From: an uncultured Granulosicoccaceae bacterium
Lineage (GTDB): Bacteria; Pseudomonadota; Gammaproteobacteria; CALCKW01
Assembly (NCBI GenBank): GCA_937925815.1
Contig: CALAMQ010000082.1
Span: forward strand, 1-56,050
Length of the DNA stretch: 56,050 bases
Direction of reading: 5' to 3'
A program made the position numbers and the translations under genes. The notes beneath the pieces are model-generated. The model did not search any database and was not told the DNA's origin. It was given only the letters and a program-made list of their open reading frames with translations. Of this stretch, positions 2,928 through 44,129 are shown piece by piece. Every line of letters begins with the position of its first letter. Position 1 is the stretch's first letter.

Positions 2928-3852
2928 CCGCGCGGCCTTTGAGCAGCAGCGGTGTCAGAAACATGGGTACTTGATACAGCGCCACAAACAACCCGACCAC
3001 TGGGTCCGGTGGCATCGAGGCGTAATAGAGTGCGATGTTGCGGTTACCGCTGAGGATGCCGTAGGCGCCGGCTCGCGCGTGATGGGTCCAGCGCGCGGCA
3101 AGTGCGCGCACTGCGAGGTTGGTGCCGAGGCTGATCACAAACACCAGTGCCATAAGCTCCGCCGCCAGTGCGAGGTTTTCAAGTAATACAGGTTTGACGC
3201 TTGCGAACAGTGGCAGCAGAAAACACAGCATGGCAAGCGCGGCGATGCCGTCGAGCGCGCGGGGGTGATGCCCAATCCAGCGCTTGCCAACCGCGCGCCT
3301 AAACCCAAGGCCGGACACCACGGCGCCTGCAATGATCGCAGTGAGCGACAGTGTCAATGCAAGGGGCGCAACGGGCAGTTCGATGCCGGCAATCCAAATC
3401 AGGCACAGCGGCCCAATCAGCGGGGTCAGCAGCGTGATGGCGACGGTGAGCTGCAGCGCCACGGCGGCGTCCAGGCCGAGCATAAAGCACAGCGCCGCGC
3501 TTGACCCGATGGGCGGTGCGGCGGCGAAGATGGCAAGGCAGAGCGCGAGAGTGGGGTCGAGATCCAGCAGGACGCTGGCCGCTGTGACAGCACCAATGCT
3601 CAGCGGCAACAAGCCCGCGACACACACCGCCGACACCCGGCGCGCGGCGGCGTCTCGCCACGACGCGGTGACGGATGCGATGTCCAGCCGCGCAAAGGCG
3701 ACTGCGAGCAAGCTTGCCGAGGTGATTGGCAATGCCACCGCCAGCACGGACTCAGGCACCGACGGCAGCAGCAGTGAAGCCAGCATGCCCACGGCGAGGC
3801 TCCACCCGGCGCGCTCGCCAAGCCAGCTCAAGGCGGCTGTGATCGGGTGCAT
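2905..3852 (-). CDS. BASS/SBF-type membrane transporter
   Basis: A 315-residue hydrophobic protein with about nine to ten membrane segments. It resembles the bile acid:sodium symporter (BASS/SBF) superfamily: paired internal halves, a proline-rich crossing helix region (IFAAAPPIGSSAALCFMLG, about residue 111) and the C-terminal GILSGNRNIALYYA, which corresponds to the SGNRN motif common in this family. Substrates range from organic acids to arsenite, and the sequence does not decide among them. The gene overlaps the convergent flavoprotein gene by 23 bp at its 3' end. The next gene upstream on the same strand ends 47 bp away, so co-transcription is possible. Confidence 0.7.
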   Translation of the reverse strand: MHPITAALSWLGERAGWSLAVGMLASLLLPSVPESVLAVALPITSASLLAVAFARLDIASVTASWRDAAARRVSAVCVAGLLPLSIGAVTAASVLLDLDPTLALCLAIFAAAPPIGSSAALCFMLGLDAAVALQLTVAITLLTPLIGPLCLIWIAGIELPVAPLALTLSLTAIIAGAVVSGLGFRRAVGKRWIGHHPRALDGIAALAMLCFLLPLFASVKPVLLENLALAAELMALVFVISLGTNLAVRALAARWTHHARAGAYGILSGNRNIALYYASMPPDPVVGLFVALYQVPMFLTPLLLKGRAAKTRPDG

Positions 3853-3899
3853 GCTGAGGGCCTGTTGAAGAGGGCGGTGGCCGCCTTGCGGTTAAGAGG

Positions 3900-4706
3900 T
3901 CAGTCGGCGAGCCAGTGTGCCGGGTTGGGTAGTGCCGGTCGAAAGTAACACACGGCGCGGCGCAGTTCGGGGTTGCCGCCGGCGCGCCAGGGTGCGATGC
4001 CGTGCACCGCGAGCCGGTGCACAAGGTAGGCACCGCCCCGGTCTGTTGACACTTCCACCCGGCGGCACTCGGCAAAGACGGTTTTGCGGGCGCGGTGGTA
4101 GGGCTCGGTCAGGTCCACGTCATGCCAGCGCGCGGGCGGCACGCCGGCGAGGGTCGTTTGCAGCGCCGCTTTGATGATGTGGTGCGAACCCTCCCACACC
4201 GCGAGCGGCGAGCCGCCATCTGGCGCGTTGGCCCAGGGCAGGCCAAGCACAAAGGCGTGGTATTCGTTGGCGTGACGCCGCCGCTCCGGGCCTACGGGGT
4301 GCAGCCCGTCAACGTGGGCCGCGTCGCGCTGGAGGCGGTAACGGTAACTTGCCTCTGACTCGCCAGGGTCTGGGCGCGGGTAACCTGGGTAGACAACTGA
4401 AAGCTGTCCCGCGTCCCAGTGGTCCGTGTGGTGTCCGGTGTGGTCGCTGACCCATTGCAAAATTGAAGTTGGCAGCGGTGGGCCGCCTGGGCAAGCGCCG
4501 CTGGGGTCGTTGTTTAGGAGGTTTACGCCTGCATACCAAGTGCCACCCGCGCGCAGCCATTTGGCGTTGGCGGGGTCGCGCAACGCGCGTTCGGCGTGGT
4601 GGTCTAGGGCGTCAAGCCAAGAGTGGAGCCCGTCAATGTTGTCTGACGTGACCCACCCGCGCGCGGTGAAGTTGGCGCGGGGTGAGGGCTCAGTCTGCGC
4701 TCGCAA
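3900..4706 (-). CDS. Phytanoyl-CoA dioxygenase (PhyH)-like protein
   Basis: The protein looks like a member of the PhyH branch of Fe(II)/2-oxoglutarate oxygenases. The facial triad is visible as HVDG (HxD) in the middle and a late histidine in VHRLAVHGIAPW, with an arginine-bearing stretch, NPELRRAVCYFRP, that would hold the co-substrate. Members hydroxylate varied small molecules, and the substrate here is unknown. The start is uncertain. The frame stays open to a TTG at 4763, inside the preceding M23 gene. I prefer the TTG at 4706, which overlaps that gene's stop by 17 bp and leaves the usual short lead before FTARGWV. Neither start has a good ribosome binding site. Confidence 0.65.
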   Translation of the reverse strand: MRAQTEPSPRANFTARGWVTSDNIDGLHSWLDALDHHAERALRDPANAKWLRAGGTWYAGVNLLNNDPSGACPGGPPLPTSILQWVSDHTGHHTDHWDAGQLSVVYPGYPRPDPGESEASYRYRLQRDAAHVDGLHPVGPERRRHANEYHAFVLGLPWANAPDGGSPLAVWEGSHHIIKAALQTTLAGVPPARWHDVDLTEPYHRARKTVFAECRRVEVSTDRGGAYLVHRLAVHGIAPWRAGGNPELRRAVCYFRPALPNPAHWLAD

Positions 4707-5802
4707 CCTGGTTGCCGGAGGTGATGCTCGGCGCAAAGGCGAGGCTGACTTGAAGCGGATCAACCGGGATGCCGTGCTGAATCACTTCAAAATGCAGGTT
4801 TGGCCCAGTTGCAAGGCCGCTTTGGCCCACTGCACCGATTTGCGCGCCGATGCTCACAGACTGCCCTTCTTCAAGGCCGTCTTCAAATTCGGCGAGGTGC
4901 GCATAGCGGGTCTTGAGGCCGCCATCGTGCCGGATCTCAATCAGCCGACCGTAGCCGCGCATGTTGCCGATGAAACTGATCTGGCCCGGTGCGCTTGCGT
5001 AGACGGGTGTGCCGGTGGGCGCGCCGTAGTCAACGCCGTTGTGTTGCCGCCAGGTCTTGGAAATGGGGTGCAGCCGGGGGCCGAAGGCTGAGGTGATGTG
5101 CGCGACGTCAACCGGGCGGCGAAATGAACCCGCCATCGGGTCTTCTTCGTCGATAACCCAGTTGCCGTCGTCGTCGCGCGCCACGGTCAAGATCACGTTG
5201 GCCAGCGCCAAGCGCGCGAATTCGAGCAAGGTCTTGGTGGGTTTGCCTGAGCCCGCCACGCGCTCTTTATAGGTGATGCGCACTGGCTCGCCACCGTGGA
5301 TGGCGCGCTCAAAATCAAGGTGCGGTGAGAGTGCTTCAGTCAGTTGTGCGATGACGGCCTTGGGCACGCCGTTGTCCTGCGCCGATTTGGCCAGACTGTG
5401 CTCAATGGTGAAACGCTCGGTGCGCTCGATGTCGTTGTTGTCCGCATCAATAAGGAGGGTTTCAAAGCCTGACTCGTTGCGCTCAACGACCGCGCGTTGC
5501 CCGCGTCCGAGGTGCACCACGAGGGCCTCTACGGTCTCTGCGTCTTCGGCAAAGCGCACAGCAAACCACTGTCCGGGCCGCAGCCGCCGCGGGTCTCTGA
5601 CTTCAGACAGCGCGCTTGCGAGTGCCCAACGCTGATTGCGCAGTAAACCCATATCCGCGAGCAGTACATCTAGTGAGGAGCCTGGCGTGATCTCGGCCAG
5701 CGCAATGCGATGCTGGTGGTCGGCGCTGGCGATCGCGCGAAGTGGAATCAGGCAGGTCGCAAGGCAGAGAAAAATCAGTACGGGCAGATGGCGCGGCAAC
5801 AT
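4690..5802 (-). CDS. M23-family (LytM-type) murein peptidase, active-site variant
   Basis: A 370-residue exported protein with an N-terminal signal peptide (hydrophobic core VLIFLCLATCLIPL, likely cut after AIASA), a LysM/OapA-like region with LRPGQWF near residue 75, and a C-terminal M23 domain from about residue 235. Zinc ligands His and Asp are present in HNGVDYGAP, a further histidine in YAHL, and the last ligand in LHFEV. The catalytic His of the usual HxH is replaced: the motif reads GPNLHFEV where GPHLHFEV is normal. The family cleaves peptidoglycan cross-links in the periplasm. With this change the protein may be weakly active or act as a regulator in the manner of EnvC/NlpD. The gene overlaps the PhyH-like gene downstream. 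Confidence 0.85.
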   Translation of the reverse strand: MLPRHLPVLIFLCLATCLIPLRAIASADHQHRIALAEITPGSSLDVLLADMGLLRNQRWALASALSEVRDPRRLRPGQWFAVRFAEDAETVEALVVHLGRGQRAVVERNESGFETLLIDADNNDIERTERFTIEHSLAKSAQDNGVPKAVIAQLTEALSPHLDFERAIHGGEPVRITYKERVAGSGKPTKTLLEFARLALANVILTVARDDDGNWVIDEEDPMAGSFRRPVDVAHITSAFGPRLHPISKTWRQHNGVDYGAPTGTPVYASAPGQISFIGNMRGYGRLIEIRHDGGLKTRYAHLAEFEDGLEEGQSVSIGAQIGAVGQSGLATGPNLHFEVIQHGIPVDPLQVSLAFAPSITSGNQVASAD

Positions 5803-38337: not shown

Positions 38338-38946
38338 ATGGCAACCCGACGACGCAACGCCAAGAGTGCCGGTCGCCCCATTCAATACGATCGCGCGACC
38401 GCCATCGAGGCGGCCACACGGCTGTTCTTTGAGAAGGGGTTCCGAGACACCTCAGTTCAAGACGTAGTGGCTGCCACTGGTATGCAAACCGGCAGTGTGT
38501 ACGCGGCATTTGGCTCCAAGCTCGAGCTCTTTTTAGAGTGTCTCGATGTTGATCTGTCAGAGCTTAGGCAGCAAGTCGACGAGTTAGAGGCGGCCGAAGG
38601 GCCAGCGTTGGATGCGTTGTTAGCGTTTTGGCAAATAGACGGTGGGGAACCGGCGAGCCCCTCGTTTGCCGCGAGGGCGCTGGTTGATTTCACCGACAGG
38701 GAGAGCGAAGTCTGGCAGCGCATTCAAGCGGCGTGGTCAACGCGAGATGACACCATTCATCGCGTCATTCGGTTGGCACAGGCCTCTGGAGGCATTCGCT
38801 CCGATCTTGATGCTGTCACGATCGAGCGCCATATCAATTCGCTGATTTTGGGTTCGCGGTTCATGAGTCATTACATTTGTGATGCCCAGTGCCCGCTCAG
38901 TCGACAGGCTGTAATCGAATTTCTCGCACCTCGCGCGATAATGTGA
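38338..38946 (+). CDS. TetR-family transcriptional regulator
   Basis: A 202-residue regulator. The N-terminal TetR helix-turn-helix is clear: AIEAATRLFFEKGFRDTSVQDVVAATG with MQTGSVYAAFGSKLELF. The C-terminal ligand domain is variable, with conserved-looking QAVIEFLAP at the end. The ligand and targets are unknown. It stands next to the HerA-type ATPase gene and upstream of the three-gene GTPase cluster, but a gap of 168 bp separates it from the latter. Confidence 0.9.
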   Translation: MATRRRNAKSAGRPIQYDRATAIEAATRLFFEKGFRDTSVQDVVAATGMQTGSVYAAFGSKLELFLECLDVDLSELRQQVDELEAAEGPALDALLAFWQIDGGEPASPSFAARALVDFTDRESEVWQRIQAAWSTRDDTIHRVIRLAQASGGIRSDLDAVTIERHINSLILGSRFMSHYICDAQCPLSRQAVIEFLAPRAIM

Positions 38947-39114: not shown

Positions 39115-40860
39115 ATGAATGAGTCGGACTCTGCCAGCAACCCAGAAATGGAGCTGTTGCGCAATTTGCTGATCGGAGAGGAACGGCGCGAACTCGATGA
39201 CCTCAAGCGATCCCTAGAGGATGCAATGAGTGCGGCGGAAGCCAATCGCTCACAGCTTGCCGAACTTTCCACACAAACCGAACTACTTCAATCTCAAGCA
39301 GCCGATCAATCTGCGTTTCTGGCCGCGTCGGCTGACGCACTGCCGGAGGCTCTGCGGCTTGCGGGGCGCTCTGATCCGCAAGGTGTGTCGCGCGCGCTCT
39401 CGCCGTTTGTGGTGACCAGTATCCGCAAAGAGATCGTCAATTCGCGGGATGAGATGGTCGATGCGCTCTACCCAATAACCGGTCGACTGGTCGCGGCATC
39501 GGTGCGCAATTCGATCGCCAAGCTCAGCGAGGACATCAATGAGCGCATGAATGCGCTGACGTCGATGGCGATGTGGCGCGCACGTGTACAAGCATGGCGA
39601 ACCGGTGAGCCGGTCTCAACATTTATGTTGACCTCTGGCGGAAATTTTCACGTGTTGCGCGCCATGTTGCTCGACCGAAGCTCCGGGGTGCCGCTGAGCG
39701 TGGCCGAAGCCGAAGACGTCGAGGAGCGCTCTGACACCAACCTGATAAGCGGTCTGCTGACAGCCTTGTCAAACCTGACAGAGGAGGTTTATACCTCGGC
39801 GGCCGACGAGCTGCGGCGGGTGGACTTGAACGGGCGCCAGATTGCATTTCGCCGGTCGGCCTCACAACTGCTAGTTATCGAATTTGTAGGGCAGCCTGCC
39901 GCAGATATTTTGGCTGACGTGGATCAGCGCTTTGGTGACATTGTCGCTTTGGGCGAGCGCGAAAACCGTGCCGAGCTCGACTCAGCAGTGGGAGCGCTGT
40001 TGCATTTAGAGGCAGTGCAAGCCGACACCGACGCTCCGGAAAAGCCCCGATATGCGTTGTGGGCGCTGGCCGGTGTTGCAGTGGTTTTACTGGGTTGGGC
40101 ACTGGGTGCAGCCTTCGGTCGATGGCAACTGGACAGTGCTGTTGATCGAATGCAGCAGGTGATTGAGGCGGAACCCGCGTTGGCTGCGTATCCCATTTCA
40201 ATCTCCGCGGATTATGATGACAGCGCCATTGATGTCAGTGGCTTGCTACCGCATTCAGCTTCTGCGTCTTCGCTCTTGCAGGCACTTGAAACGGCATCGG
40301 GTTCTTTCTCTGTCAGAGGCCGCTTTGAAGGTGTCGCGGACAGCGAGGCGTTGTCGCATGCAGAGGGTCTTGTTGCCGCATTGCAGGCGGAAAATGGCAA
40401 ATTACGTGACTCGCTCAATGCCGTGGAGCAACAGCTCGGCGGTGCAAGAATTGAAGATGTGAGGATCAGTCTTCAGCGACTGACAGATCGACTTAAGAAA
40501 GTCACGACGGTATTTGAAGGTGCGGTAGAGCAGCTTCAGGGTGCTGCGAACGGCACCAAGGTGGCTTTTGAAAATGAGCTTGAGTTGCGTGACGCCAGTG
40601 CGGCGGACGCCGATCTCAAACGCCTTGCTGCATTGCTTTTGAAAACGCCTGAAGATCTGTTGATCATTCCCAAGCGAGACACCGATGGCGGGGAGAGTGA
40701 TCGCTGGCCAAAAGCGCGGGCGCAATATGTGCGCACGCAATTGTTGCGTTTGGGTGTGCCGGTGTCGCAGTTGTCTATCTCGGAGCCATTGGCTATCAAG
40801 TCAGCAGAGGAGTTTGGCTCGGTCGCTTTTGCTTTGGGTGGCGAGGCAGCACTGCAATGA
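39115..40860 (+). CDS. Membrane protein: coiled coil, longin/roadblock-like domain, TM, BON/OmpA-like C-terminus
   Basis: A 581-residue protein of unknown function. Residues about 5-60 form a coiled coil. About 80-170 resembles a segment found in OmpA-family proteins of uncharacterised clusters, with LYPITGRLVAASVRNSI and MWRARVQAWRTGEPV. About 175-290 reads like a longin/roadblock-type domain: FHVLRAMLLDRSSGVPLS, then SDTNLISGLLTALSNLTEEV, then strands IAFRRSASQLLVIEFVG. A single TM helix follows at about 312-334 (ALWALAGVAVVLLGWALGAAF). The periplasmic part has a BON-like repeat (VDRMQQVIEA ... YPISISADY) and a short OmpA-like end (KARAQYVRTQLLRLGVPVSQL). Its stop overlaps the GTPase gene (ATGA). 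ATG 39115 is the likely start; the frame is open to 39046. Domain calls beyond the TM helix are inference from pattern. Confidence 0.65.
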   Translation: MNESDSASNPEMELLRNLLIGEERRELDDLKRSLEDAMSAAEANRSQLAELSTQTELLQSQAADQSAFLAASADALPEALRLAGRSDPQGVSRALSPFVVTSIRKEIVNSRDEMVDALYPITGRLVAASVRNSIAKLSEDINERMNALTSMAMWRARVQAWRTGEPVSTFMLTSGGNFHVLRAMLLDRSSGVPLSVAEAEDVEERSDTNLISGLLTALSNLTEEVYTSAADELRRVDLNGRQIAFRRSASQLLVIEFVGQPAADILADVDQRFGDIVALGERENRAELDSAVGALLHLEAVQADTDAPEKPRYALWALAGVAVVLLGWALGAAFGRWQLDSAVDRMQQVIEAEPALAAYPISISADYDDSAIDVSGLLPHSASASSLLQALETASGSFSVRGRFEGVADSEALSHAEGLVAALQAENGKLRDSLNAVEQQLGGARIEDVRISLQRLTDRLKKVTTVFEGAVEQLQGAANGTKVAFENELELRDASAADADLKRLAALLLKTPEDLLIIPKRDTDGGESDRWPKARAQYVRTQLLRLGVPVSQLSISEPLAIKSAEEFGSVAFALGGEAALQ

Positions 40861-41360
40861 CGCTGCGACCGAAAAAAATCCTGATGGTTGGCGCGCAGGC
40901 GGTGGGCAAGACCTCTGTTACCCGTCGGTTAAAATTCAACACCTTTGAAGCTGACTACAAATCCACCATTGGTGTGCAATTGCACGAAATACCGGTTTCC
41001 ACATCGCAAGGAGAGTTGTCGATGTTGGTGTGGGATACTGATGGCAATTTCGGTGAGCAGGTATTTGACACGGTGTATGCCAAAGGTGCGACCGGCGCGA
41101 TCGTCGTTGGAGATGTGTCTCGACCAGACACCATCGAACACATGGTTCGATTGGCCAACGATTTTTCAGATAACTTTCCGGCGCGTCCGAGTTTGTGTCT
41201 GTTGAATAAAACGGATTTGTTCATGCCATCAGAACAAAGTGTGGCGGCGTTGCGAGAGCGTGTGGAGTCAGTGGAGCTTTGCAGTGCCTTAGAAGGATCG
41301 GGCCTTGGTTCTGCCTTTTCGTGCTTTGCTGAGACGGTGCTTGAAAGAGACCAGCTGTGA
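40857..41360 (+). CDS. Ras/Rab-like small GTPase
   Basis: A 167-residue protein with all five G motifs of a Ras-superfamily GTPase: G1 GAQAVGKTS near residue 12, G2 threonine in YKSTIGVQL (switch I), G3 WDTDGNF, G4 NKTD near residue 121, and G5 SALEG near residue 143. The G3 motif departs from the usual WDTAGQE: Ala is Asp and the catalytic Gln (Ras Q61) is Asn, so intrinsic GTP hydrolysis may be slow or need a partner. Bacterial members such as MglA work as switches with roadblock-domain partners. It overlaps both neighbours by four bases (ATGA and GTGA), so it is made with the longin-like protein and the histidine kinase. Confidence 0.88.
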   Translation: MTLRPKKILMVGAQAVGKTSVTRRLKFNTFEADYKSTIGVQLHEIPVSTSQGELSMLVWDTDGNFGEQVFDTVYAKGATGAIVVGDVSRPDTIEHMVRLANDFSDNFPARPSLCLLNKTDLFMPSEQSVAALRERVESVELCSALEGSGLGSAFSCFAETVLERDQL

Positions 41361-42847
41361 ACACTGAGGCGGGATTGTCGCTCGATGTCCTGGCTGACGA
41401 TCTCAATATCATAGGTGTCGCGTGGGTCGATCGTGACGGGGTGGTGGAGTCAACCCGTGGTCAATTGGCAGCTTGGCTTGCAGTCGGCGACCGACTGTCC
41501 GAAGGCGTTACAGTGCTCAATGGCCTCGAAGAAGAGTTCGACGCTCTGGTCGGGGATCCATCCGGTGACTTGACCCTGCAAGACATCACCTTTGGTGAAG
41601 ATCTGCAAAAACGCTTTCATACCATTATTGTCCGGTGGCACCCGGCGATTGAGCGTTTTGCTGTGACCACCATGGCCATTGAGGCCTCGGAAAATTCTCT
41701 TGCCAGCGTGACCCAGCTCGCGCGATCTCGCCAGTACTATGAGCAAGTGCTCGAATCGGAACGGGCTCACTTTCGTGGCATTTACGAGAACAGTCCAGTG
41801 TTTGCGTTCTCGTGCCGCGAAAACGGACAAGTGGTTGCGGCCACTGAAGACATGCGAGCCTTCTTTCTCGACAGTGACGAGTCAACGCCACTGGTTCAAC
41901 TTAATCTGCACGACAGCACGTTTCTACAGGCATTCTCCAAAACCACTGTGTGGTCAGATGTCTGGGCTGGAGAGCGCGTGGCGCGTAGAAATTGGCGCAC
42001 GGACACCAGGCAGGGCGTCACACTCGATCTGGAAGTCTCCGGTCAAGTTATGCGGCATCCAACCTTGGATTGTCTTGAAGGATATTTCACACTATTTGAT
42101 GTGACAGACTTGCATGCATCGCAAGCGCGCCTGCTGCGTTCAAACAAGAGGTTTGAAAGCACTGCCAGGCAGGTAGCGCACGATTTGCTTACGCCGCTTC
42201 GCCGCATCAGCAGGCTCTCTGAATTGATCTCAAGTGAATTTGCCGGCACCGGGTCTGAGGCCATTAAGTCAACCTTGGATGAGCTGGTCAAGTCAGCATC
42301 GCAGGGTCGAAATTTGGTCACAGACATTGTTGAAGTCGCGAGGACCACTGCGATGCGCTCCAATGCGGAGAATATCGATCCTGTCGCGATCATGCGGAAT
42401 GTGGAAGACGAGTACGCCTTTGATCTCGAAGACATTGGCGCGACTGTCATTTACGACGCACCGCCCGTTGAAGTGTTGGGGGACGAGACCTTGCTAATGC
42501 AGATCTACCGCAACTTTCTCTCGAATGCGATCAAGTATCGCCACAATGACCGGCAATTGGTCGTGCGCTTTGTGGTTTCTGAAGACGAGCAACACGGTCT
42601 TGAGATCGCGTTTTCTGACAATGGTCGAGGTTTTGACAGCGATTCCGCGCCCGATGTGTTCGATGCCTTTGTTCGCCTTGTCGGCAAAGACGATGTGCAC
42701 GGCACAGGTATCGGTCTCGATATTGTCAAAGAGGCTGTGGATTTACTGGGCTGGGACGTGAGTGCGCAAGCACGTGAAGGCGAGGGTGCAACCTTTCTGC
42801 TGTCCATTGGGCAGAGTAAGTGGCAGTGGTTGCCGGTGCCGAGATAG
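41357..42847 (+). CDS. PAS-type sensor histidine kinase (orphan)
   Basis: A 496-residue histidine kinase without membrane helices, so it senses inside the cell. An N-terminal PAS-like domain (about residues 10-120) and a second PAS-like region (about 135-250, with FRGIYENSPVFAFSCRENGQVV) precede the dimerisation domain with the phospho-accepting His in ARQVAHDLLTPLRRI near residue 275. The ATPase domain has N box NFLSNAIKY, G1 DNGRGF and G2 GTGIGLDIVK. No response regulator is adjacent. It starts with GTG overlapping the GTPase stop. The placement suggests it reads or sets the state of the GTPase module. Confidence 0.9.
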   Translation: MNTEAGLSLDVLADDLNIIGVAWVDRDGVVESTRGQLAAWLAVGDRLSEGVTVLNGLEEEFDALVGDPSGDLTLQDITFGEDLQKRFHTIIVRWHPAIERFAVTTMAIEASENSLASVTQLARSRQYYEQVLESERAHFRGIYENSPVFAFSCRENGQVVAATEDMRAFFLDSDESTPLVQLNLHDSTFLQAFSKTTVWSDVWAGERVARRNWRTDTRQGVTLDLEVSGQVMRHPTLDCLEGYFTLFDVTDLHASQARLLRSNKRFESTARQVAHDLLTPLRRISRLSELISSEFAGTGSEAIKSTLDELVKSASQGRNLVTDIVEVARTTAMRSNAENIDPVAIMRNVEDEYAFDLEDIGATVIYDAPPVEVLGDETLLMQIYRNFLSNAIKYRHNDRQLVVRFVVSEDEQHGLEIAFSDNGRGFDSDSAPDVFDAFVRLVGKDDVHGTGIGLDIVKEAVDLLGWDVSAQAREGEGATFLLSIGQSKWQWLPVPR

Positions 42848-42890: not shown

Positions 42891-44129
42891 GTGCCCGAGA
42901 TCTCTGTTATGGCTGAACAGTCTGTCGTGGATTGTGATCCGCGAAACCCCACATTCTACGAAGATCCCTTTGCCACCTATTCCCGGTGGCACGCTGAGAA
43001 TCCCGTCTTCTATTGGCAGCAATACGGGATGGTTTGCTTCGCCGGGTATTCTGACGTCAACACACTTCTCAGAGACAATAGATTTGGTCGGCAAATCACC
43101 CACAAGGTTAGCCGCGAGGCATTGGGTTGGGCGCCCCGTCCTGCCGCTTTGGCAGATTTTGACCGTGTAGAACTGCACAGCTTGCTCAATCTGGAGCCGC
43201 CTCGACACACGACGATGCGCGCGCTTGTTAACAAGGCCTTTATCGGTCGCGAAATTGAAGCGCTCAGGCCAACTGTCGAATCGTTGGTCCATCGCACGAT
43301 AGACAGTTTTATCAATGACCGCGAGGTTGAGTTGTTGAGCCGTTTTGCAATGCCGGTTCCAGCTCAGGTCATAGCAAGCATGATTGGTATGCCTGGTGAG
43401 GCAGTGCCAGACTTGCTTGCCTGGTCTCATGCGCTGGTGAAGGTGTATACGCGCCAGCAAACTCCTGAAGAGGATGTTCAGGCCAATCGAGCAGCTGCCG
43501 AGTTTTCAAGTTTTCTGCACGATGTGATTCGAGACAAGCGCTTGTCGCCCAAGAACGATTTGCTCAGTCGCCTGATTTCAGTACAACAGGATGGACAGTC
43601 ACTTAGTGATGACGAGATTGTGTCGACTGTCGTGTTGTTGTTGAATGCAGGCCACGAGGCAAGTGTTCACTTGATGGGAAATGCCGTGGCAACCTTGCTG
43701 GCGCACCCCGATCAGATTGAGCGCATTCGCGCCGACGCCACCAGCATCGCAGGCATTGCACAAGAAGTGATGCGCTTTTGTACCCCGCTTCACCTCTTCA
43801 CACGCTATGCATTGGAAGACGTAGAGTTGGAGGCAGGTCTGAAAATTAAACGGGGAGACGAAGTAGGTTTGCTGCTCGGCGCGGCAAATCGTGACCCTGT
43901 GCGCTTTATTGATCCAAACCAATTTAATCCCGATCGTCCCGTGCAGGGCCACCTGTCACTTGGTGCTGGAATTCACTACTGTGTCGGTGCGGTGCTCGCG
44001 CGCATGGAGTTGGAGATCGCGCTGGTCGCGCTGTTTACGCGGCTTCCATCAGTGTCGCTCAACGGCCCGCTTCAGATCAGAGACAGCTTCCACTTCCACG
44101 GATTGGATGCATTGAATCTGCGTTGGTGA
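42891..44129 (+). CDS. Cytochrome P450
   Basis: A 412-residue soluble bacterial P450. Recognised parts are the I helix VLLLNAGHEASVHL near residue 250, the ExxR motif in QEVMRF near residue 290 and the heme loop LSLGAGIHYCVGAVLAR with the cysteine ligand. Two departures: the acid-alcohol pair normally E/D-T reads E-A (AGHEAS), and the Phe that normally opens the heme loop is Leu. The enzyme would hydroxylate a small hydrophobic substrate with a ferredoxin partner not encoded nearby. The start may be GTG 42891 or, better matching the family, ATG 42909. It is 43 bp after the histidine kinase and may be co-transcribed. Confidence 0.9.
   Translation: MPEISVMAEQSVVDCDPRNPTFYEDPFATYSRWHAENPVFYWQQYGMVCFAGYSDVNTLLRDNRFGRQITHKVSREALGWAPRPAALADFDRVELHSLLNLEPPRHTTMRALVNKAFIGREIEALRPTVESLVHRTIDSFINDREVELLSRFAMPVPAQVIASMIGMPGEAVPDLLAWSHALVKVYTRQQTPEEDVQANRAAAEFSSFLHDVIRDKRLSPKNDLLSRLISVQQDGQSLSDDEIVSTVVLLLNAGHEASVHLMGNAVATLLAHPDQIERIRADATSIAGIAQEVMRFCTPLHLFTRYALEDVELEAGLKIKRGDEVGLLLGAANRDPVRFIDPNQFNPDRPVQGHLSLGAGIHYCVGAVLARMELEIALVALFTRLPSVSLNGPLQIRDSFHFHGLDALNLRW

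What the first reader, a model, noticed from the sequence alone, without database searches (positions are those of the whole stretch)
39115..42847. Three-gene module: longin-like membrane protein, Ras-like GTPase and histidine kinase
Three genes are joined by four-base stop/start overlaps (ATGA and GTGA). They encode a membrane protein with a cytoplasmic longin/roadblock-like region and a periplasmic BON/OmpA-like end, a Ras/Rab-like GTPase, and a soluble PAS histidine kinase with no adjacent response regulator. In known systems (MglA/MglB, Rag/Ragulator) roadblock or longin domains regulate small GTPases, so the pairing predicts a membrane-bound GTPase switch. The kinase and the OmpA-like periplasmic part would link it to phosphosignalling and the envelope. 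I know of no described pathway with this exact trio.
Basis: partly seen in the sequence, partly recalled or inferred. Interest (0 to 1): 0.85.

Follow-up and report, generated by a model that had tools for sequence, protein, structure and literature searches.

The report
Divergent longin-OmpA, Rup-GTPase, kinase operon
Three overlapping bacterial genes encode an offshoot of a known but untested signalling system (the 'Group 1 Rup' GTPase systems), and the membrane protein's unnamed domain is predicted to have the longin fold that holds small GTPases in our own cells, which suggests how the bacterial switch could be held at the cell envelope.

Summary
In detail: three genes, two four-base overlaps. 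The membrane protein is predicted to be coiled coil, longin domain (177-302), TM helix and BON/OmpA-like periplasmic part. The longin fold is seen only by structure: AF2 plus Foldseek/VIA, Z up to 11.5 to TRAPP/SNARE longins. The GTPase is Rab-like without the G3 Gln. The kinase is intact; no receiver lies on the contig. Linkage is strong: 72 of 80 loci have the GTPase directly downstream, in eight phyla; in 276 genomes of the class all 22 with the GTPase also have the membrane protein. The fourth-position gene is an interchangeable output (kinase, HD-GYP, cyclase, sigma-54 activator), implying GTPase controls output. New: the 'domain of unknown function' looks like a longin, so these systems would carry their GTPase platform fused to an envelope anchor; outputs are wider than described; this genus lacks the coiled-coil neighbour and fused receiver and has a duplicated GTPase-kinase pair. 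GEF/GAP activity and signal direction are inferred, not shown.

The parts
39115..40860 (+). LONG: membrane protein, 581 aa: N-terminal helices, longin domain, TM helix, BON-like and OmpA-like periplasmic part
39142..39318 (+). N-terminal coiled coil (residues 10-68) beginning with the family motif LRNLLIGEERR (LRxLLLG in relatives)
39562..39642 (+). pre-longin helices (residues 150-176), the most conserved stretch of the family
39643..40020 (+). longin/roadblock-fold domain (residues 177-302), predicted cytoplasmic GTPase-binding platform
   Evidence: binding itself is inferred
40054..40116 (+). predicted transmembrane helix (about residues 314-334)
40195..40326 (+). BON-like periplasmic segment (residues 361-404, beta-beta-alpha-beta)
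   Evidence: one relative hits Pfam BON; Rv0899 match of the family profile
40570..40842 (+). divergent OmpA/Pal-like domain (residues 486-576)
   Evidence: key residues not conserved in the genus
40857..41360 (+). Rup-type Ras-like GTPase, 167 aa; G1 GAQAVGKTS, G2 STIG, G3 DTDGN, G4 NKTD, G5 CSA
41034..41048 (+). G3 motif DTDGN: Asn at the position of Ras Gln61
   Evidence: Gln in only 1 of 92 aligned sequences
41357..42847 (+). soluble histidine kinase, 496 aa, no receiver domain
41357..41806 (+). kinase N-terminal region (residues 1-150), remote match to the N-terminal domain shared by Rup output proteins
   Evidence: score 28.0 against a shuffled maximum of 20.3, 0 of 100
41714..41716 (+). 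Gln120, candidate for the invariant Gln of Rup output modules (TQLAR)
   Evidence: 4 of 5 kinases of the genus; assignment by eye, uncertain
42167..42346 (+). HisKA dimerisation domain with phospho-acceptor His275
42479..42808 (+). HATPase_c domain
   Evidence: E 1.6e-19

Best explanation
This is a divergent, reduced Group 1 Rup signalling module. LONG sits in the inner membrane with its BON/OmpA-like part in the periplasm, where it monitors or grips the envelope. Its cytoplasmic helices and longin domain form the platform, probably dimeric, that holds the Rup GTPase at the membrane and sets its nucleotide state. The GTP-bound GTPase then acts on the N-terminal region of the soluble kinase and changes its autophosphorylation; the signal leaves through a response regulator encoded elsewhere. 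Shown: gene order, domain content, wide linkage, co-occurrence and exchangeable outputs. Predicted: the longin and OmpA folds. Inferred: binding, GEF or GAP activity, direction of the signal, the periplasmic stimulus.
For: LONG-GTPase adjacency in 72 of 80 loci from eight phyla, mostly overlapping or within 40 bp. Co-occurrence in the class: all 22 genomes with the GTPase (E<1e-50) are among the 23 with LONG (E<1e-90) out of 276, Fisher p 1e-31 with phylogeny ignored; in G267 the two genes lie on different contigs. Longin fold at 177-302, with MglB, the MglA-MglB complex, Ragulator and TRAPP-Rab complexes among the matches; the cytoplasmic part is better conserved than the OmpA part. Outputs swap (32 HATPase, 20 HD-GYP, 11 cyclase, 4 sigma-54 of 71) behind N-terminal regions with a near-invariant Gln (66 of 71), which argues that the GTPase acts on the output. 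In this genus a GTPase-kinase pair is duplicated and kept together without LONG. No MglB-type roadblock protein in the own genome.
Against: No interaction data or complex model. The longin domain is invisible to sequence profiles, and Foldseek E-values are only about 1e-3. The kinase N-terminus matches the Rup output domain only weakly, and its AF2 model failed. The genus lies on a very long branch and lacks the coiled-coil gene; OmpA peptidoglycan-contact residues are not kept across the genus. Seven loci have LONG without an adjacent GTPase.
Confidence: 0.6

Rival explanations
1. Signal runs the other way: the kinase is the input and phosphorylates or regulates the GTPase, which is the output, as Wuichet & Sogaard-Andersen proposed for actinobacterial conservons.
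For: No receiver domain on the contig; the conservon precedent has a kinase, a GTPase and a roadblock protein but no response regulator (PMC4316618; PMC13343842).
Against: Among relatives the kinase is replaced by HD-GYP, cyclases or sigma-54 activators, and 17 of 71 outputs carry a receiver domain, which fits an output. The kinase here has no TM sensor.
Confidence: 0.18
2. LONG is the effector: GTPase and kinase control when LONG holds peptidoglycan or another envelope partner, so the output is envelope architecture or localisation.
For: OmpA/Pal-like fold, OmpA Pfam match in 47 of 52 relatives; GTPase systems such as MglA control localisation.
Against: The peptidoglycan-contact residues are not conserved in this genus, and some relatives lack most of the OmpA end (L016, L049, L058, L060) yet keep the other genes.
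Confidence: 0.12
3. In this genus the system is decaying: the divergent sequence, missing coiled-coil partner and degenerate paralogue mark a remnant with little function.
For: Long branch; no coiled-coil gene; the paralogous GTPase in the own genome has lost Switch I.
Against: All three frames are open in the two other species of the genus whose locus is complete, with 80% and 52% GTPase identity and 69% and 48% kinase identity to the window, and with intact G1-G5 motifs and kinase boxes.
Confidence: 0.08

Closest known systems
Group 1 Rup small-GTPase systems (Wuichet & Sogaard-Andersen 2014, PMC4316618)
   Same: Membrane protein with unknown domain + TM + OmpA end, Rup GTPase without the G3 Gln, signalling output module as a neighbour; kinase is one of the two typical outputs
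   Different: Coiled-coil gene absent beside the operon and not found in the genome; kinase lacks a receiver; proteins on a long branch; the 'unknown domain' is here predicted to be a longin. Relatives add cyclase and sigma-54 outputs to the described c-di-GMP and kinase ones
MglA/MglB (Myxococcus, Thermus)
   Same: Small GTPase paired with a roadblock/longin-fold protein
   Different: Here the domain is fused to a TM helix and an OmpA-like end and has no detectable sequence similarity to Robl_LC7; the GTPase is Rab-like
Actinobacterial conservons / G protein systems (CvnA-D)
   Same: Kinase, small GTPase and roadblock-fold protein in one operon, no response regulator
   Different: Conservon GTPase is of the MglA family, with a separate MglB-type roadblock protein and a membrane-spanning kinase (PMC4316618, PMC13343842); no CvnC here
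Ragulator-Rag, TRAPP-Rab, Asgard longin/roadblock proteins
   Same: Longin/roadblock platform for a Rab/Rag-like GTPase; best structural matches
   Different: Membrane anchoring by a TM helix with a periplasmic domain; no endomembranes; likeness rests on fold only
ArfA/Rv0899 (BON-OmpA) and Pal/OmpA anchors
   Same: BON-like then OmpA-like periplasmic domains
   Different: Cytoplasmic longin and coiled coil; degenerate peptidoglycan-contact residues

Membership tests
Group 1 Rup system | Ras-superfamily GTPase of the Rup family lacking the catalytic Gln in G3 | tested here: met
   DTDGN here; Gln in 1 of 92 aligned sequences; PF00071 E 1.4e-17. Placement within the original 71-sequence tree was not done
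Group 1 Rup system | Adjacent membrane protein with conserved domain, TM helix and C-terminal OmpA | tested here: met
   Full-length relatives with OmpA in 47 of 52; TM; OmpA fold. Pfam OmpA is below cut-off in the window protein itself
Group 1 Rup system | Adjacent cytoplasmic coiled-coil protein | tested here: not met
   TetR gene upstream instead; none in the own genome (best E 0.03 with the family profile). 71 of 80 other loci have it; a congeneric genome has it unlinked (L152). Hence a reduced variant, not a standard member
Group 1 Rup system | Adjacent signalling output module (c-di-GMP enzyme or histidine kinase) | tested here: met
   HisKA + HATPase_c
Group 1 Rup system | Invariant Gln in the N-terminal region of the output module | tested here: inconclusive
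   Present in 66 of 71 outputs; in the window the N-terminal region matches remotely, Gln120 is a candidate by eye
Longin domain | beta2-alpha-beta3-alpha2 fold at structural similarity well above background | tested here: met
   AF2 elements E179-187, E193-198, H208-226, E234-238, E241-247, E251-258, H263-281, H285-296; Z 11.5 over 115 residues to synbindin, 10.6 to Sec22b and VAMP7. Prediction only
Longin domain | Sequence profile match (Pfam Robl_LC7 or longin) | tested here: not met
   No match for 52 full proteins or 15 isolated domains; no PDB longin by profile. So: longin-like fold, not a sequence-proven member
MglA/MglB system | MglB-type Robl_LC7 partner | tested here: not met
   PF03259 has no match in the own genome
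Actinobacterial conservon | CvnA-B-C-D gene set with MglB-type CvnB | tested here: not met
   No Robl_LC7 protein; gene set differs
Peptidoglycan-binding OmpA domain | Conserved Asp and Arg that hold the peptide of peptidoglycan | tested here: inconclusive
   D and R align in the window protein but are lost in part in L010 and wholly in L012; binding not testable here
Two-component histidine kinase | HisKA with His, HATPase_c | tested here: met
   (HisKA E 2.8e-5 lies just under Pfam's cut-off; His275 aligned in relatives)
PAS domain in the kinase | Pfam PAS match or PAS fold | tested here: inconclusive
   No Pfam PAS at E<=1; AF2 pLDDT about 35 over residues 1-206
GTPase-longin complex (GEF/GAP/scaffold) | Physical binding and effect on nucleotide state | not testable with these tools
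   No complex prediction available

The most novel reading that the evidence does not exclude
Group 1 Rup systems, found here in eight bacterial phyla, are bacterial counterparts of Ragulator-Rag/TRAPP-Rab: a longin platform fused through a TM helix to a BON-OmpA envelope anchor loads a Rab-like GTPase, which drives interchangeable outputs (kinase, c-di-GMP hydrolase, nucleotide cyclase, sigma-54 activator). The missing MglB equivalent of the Rup GTPases would be this fused longin domain.
Probability: 0.5. Interest if true: 0.82.

Novelty: new variant of a known kind. Interest (0 to 1): 0.6.

Why it matters
Rup GTPases are the prokaryotic family proposed as ancestral to eukaryotic Ras-superfamily GTPases (PMC4316618), yet no member had been characterised by that paper's date and they were said not to work with MglB. 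A longin domain built into their membrane partner would supply the missing regulator, place the longin-GTPase pairing in many bacterial phyla, and give a directly testable route from the envelope to phosphosignalling, c-di-GMP or cyclic nucleotides.

Tried and rejected
Single-protein scan of genome contigs with P0001 found nothing; the first alignment A1 had no conserved stretch for that scan. Full-length profile A1 over 276 genomes gave 257 'hits', nearly all generic OmpA ends; only E<1e-90 matches were kept as family members. Sequence-profile searches for roadblock/longin in Pfam, NCBIfam and PDB were negative. AF2 of the kinase failed at the N-terminus, so its domain was not searched by fold. 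Comparison of the kinase N-terminus with a tandem-domain profile was not above chance (5 of 100 shuffles as high), with the type-1 output domain it was. Chance gene order: rejected. Plasmid origin: no match in plasmids. Literature search for a bacterial longin-OmpA protein or later work on Rup systems found none in the open-access library.
Full report
What is there. The window is the whole of contig C82 of its genome. Upstream is a TetR-type gene (38338-38946) and downstream a P450-like gene (42891-44129); these neighbours recur at the locus in the nearest congeneric genomes (L010, L011) but not in G003 (L012) or beyond the genus.

Protein 1 (LONG). Pfam and NCBIfam find nothing over cut-off. 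In 52 members Pfam finds OmpA in 47 and nothing consistent for the cytoplasmic part. An AF2 model made with 51 relatives (mean pLDDT 73) has long N-terminal helices, then strands and helices in the order beta2-alpha-beta3-alpha-alpha at 179-296, a TM helix, a small BON-like unit and an OmpA-like end. Foldseek's best hits are Ragulator subunits, MglB (alone and in its MglA complex), MglC and Ykt6, with E about 1e-3 to 1e-2 and probability near 1. VIA-align gives Z 11.5 (synbindin/TRAPPC4, 115 residues), 10.9 (TRAPP), 10.6 (Sec22b, VAMP7), 10.0 (TRAPPII-Ypt32) and 9.4 (a Lokiarchaeal longin) for residues 177-302, and about 10 for OmpA/Pal at 434-576. Two helices after the sheet favour longin over roadblock topology. 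Sequence profiles of the isolated domain find no longin or roadblock in Pfam or PDB, so this is a fold prediction only. The pre-longin helices and longin domain are the best conserved parts (0.73 and 0.63 against 0.41 for the OmpA part), as expected for a partner-binding region.

Protein 2. A Ras/Rab-like GTPase (best solved relatives Rab11/Ypt31) with intact P-loop, Switch I Thr, G4 and G5, but DTDGN in G3. Among 92 aligned sequences the residue at Ras Gln61 is Glu 65 times and Gln once.

Protein 3. A soluble histidine kinase with HisKA and HATPase_c, no TM-like segment, no receiver domain, and no receiver on the contig. Its N-terminal 150 residues match the N-terminal domain of output proteins of related loci (hhalign score 28.0 against 12.3 +/- 2.1 for 100 column shuffles, maximum 20.3), but over only about 40 columns. 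The PAS label is not confirmed.

Linkage. In 276 genomes of the class, 23 hold LONG at E<1e-90 and 22 hold this GTPase type at E<1e-50; all 22 are among the 23 (Fisher p 1e-31 without correction for phylogeny). In G267 the two genes are on different contigs and both are kept. In 80 loci taken from 548 or more relatives in the genome collection the GTPase starts just after LONG in 72, in Pseudomonadota, Myxococcota, Thermodesulfobacteriota, Acidobacteriota, Gemmatimonadota, Verrucomicrobiota, Nitrospirota and Cyanobacteriota; a coiled-coil gene precedes LONG in 71.

Outputs. The gene after the GTPase encodes a kinase (HATPase in 32 of 71), an HD-GYP protein (20), a nucleotide cyclase (11) or a sigma-54 activator (4), with a near-invariant Gln in the N-terminal region (66 of 71). 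A constant front part with exchangeable catalytic ends argues that the GTPase controls the output.

What is known. Wuichet & Sogaard-Andersen (PMC4316618) described this as the Group 1 Rup system: coiled-coil protein, membrane protein with unknown domain and OmpA, GTPase without the G3 Gln, and an output module (c-di-GMP enzyme or kinase) with an invariant Gln. They speculated that a Gln is supplied in trans by an unknown GAP. No member was characterised then. Searches of the open library found no later study of one and no report of a bacterial longin-OmpA protein; papers outside that library were not seen.

The variant in this genus. All four congeneric genomes lack the coiled-coil gene beside LONG (and loci L010-L012). 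Profile and protein searches find none in the own genome, while G003 carries one unlinked (L152). The kinases lack a receiver. The GTPases form one clade (100/100) on a very long branch. The own genome and G003 each have a second GTPase-kinase pair beside recQ without LONG (L154, L153); the own copy has lost Switch I. GTPase and kinase thus stay together even without LONG, which supports their direct partnership. OmpA peptidoglycan-contact residues are not kept across the genus.

Mechanism. Most likely the periplasmic part of LONG reports on or grips the envelope, its longin domain holds and regulates the GTPase at the membrane, and GTP-bound GTPase changes the kinase through its N-terminal region. 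The first two steps rest on fold and topology, the third on linkage, output swapping and the duplicated pair. GEF versus GAP versus plain scaffold cannot be decided here. In conservons an accessory protein stimulates its kinase (PMC13343842), a useful precedent for control of a sensorless kinase by a partner.

Limits. Fold evidence comes from one AF2 model of a divergent protein. No complex was modelled. The co-occurrence test ignores shared ancestry, and its GTPase profile was built partly from LONG-linked loci. The tree lacks the original Rup reference set, and the 80 loci are the best-scoring ones, not a random sample.

Noticed in passing
L154 (G000:C146) 3013-5081: Second, paralogous GTPase-kinase pair in the window's own genome, next to recQ and without LONG; its GTPase has lost Switch I (TENGLPWYDL). 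The same place in G003 (L153) has an intact GTPase.
   Followed up: partly
L154 5566-6858 and L153 9447-10667: A receiver-kinase hybrid on the opposite strand lies next to both paralogous GTPase-kinase pairs; a candidate phospho-partner of these receiverless kinases.
   Followed up: no
L152 6310-6936 (G003:C18): Coiled-coil protein of the Rup type (QELLFGSQAREID) unlinked to any GTPase gene, in the congeneric genome that is furthest from the window.
   Followed up: partly
alignments A5 and A1; window 39142-39200: The coiled-coil partner and LONG share an N-terminal helical motif ([IL]RxxL[FL]G followed by a coiled coil), which may be a common docking or assembly element.
   Followed up: no
L051, L056, L017: Some relatives have LONG of 880-975 aa with duplicated N-terminal and BON-like units; in L051 and L056 the GTPase is not adjacent.
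   Followed up: partly
L072, L093, L098, L083: Desulfobacterial loci keep the coiled-coil gene and LONG without a recognised GTPase or output nearby.
   Followed up: no
L139: Contig titled Klebsiella pneumoniae MAG carries a Rup locus that falls among distant phyla in the GTPase tree; the label is probably a binning error.
   Followed up: no
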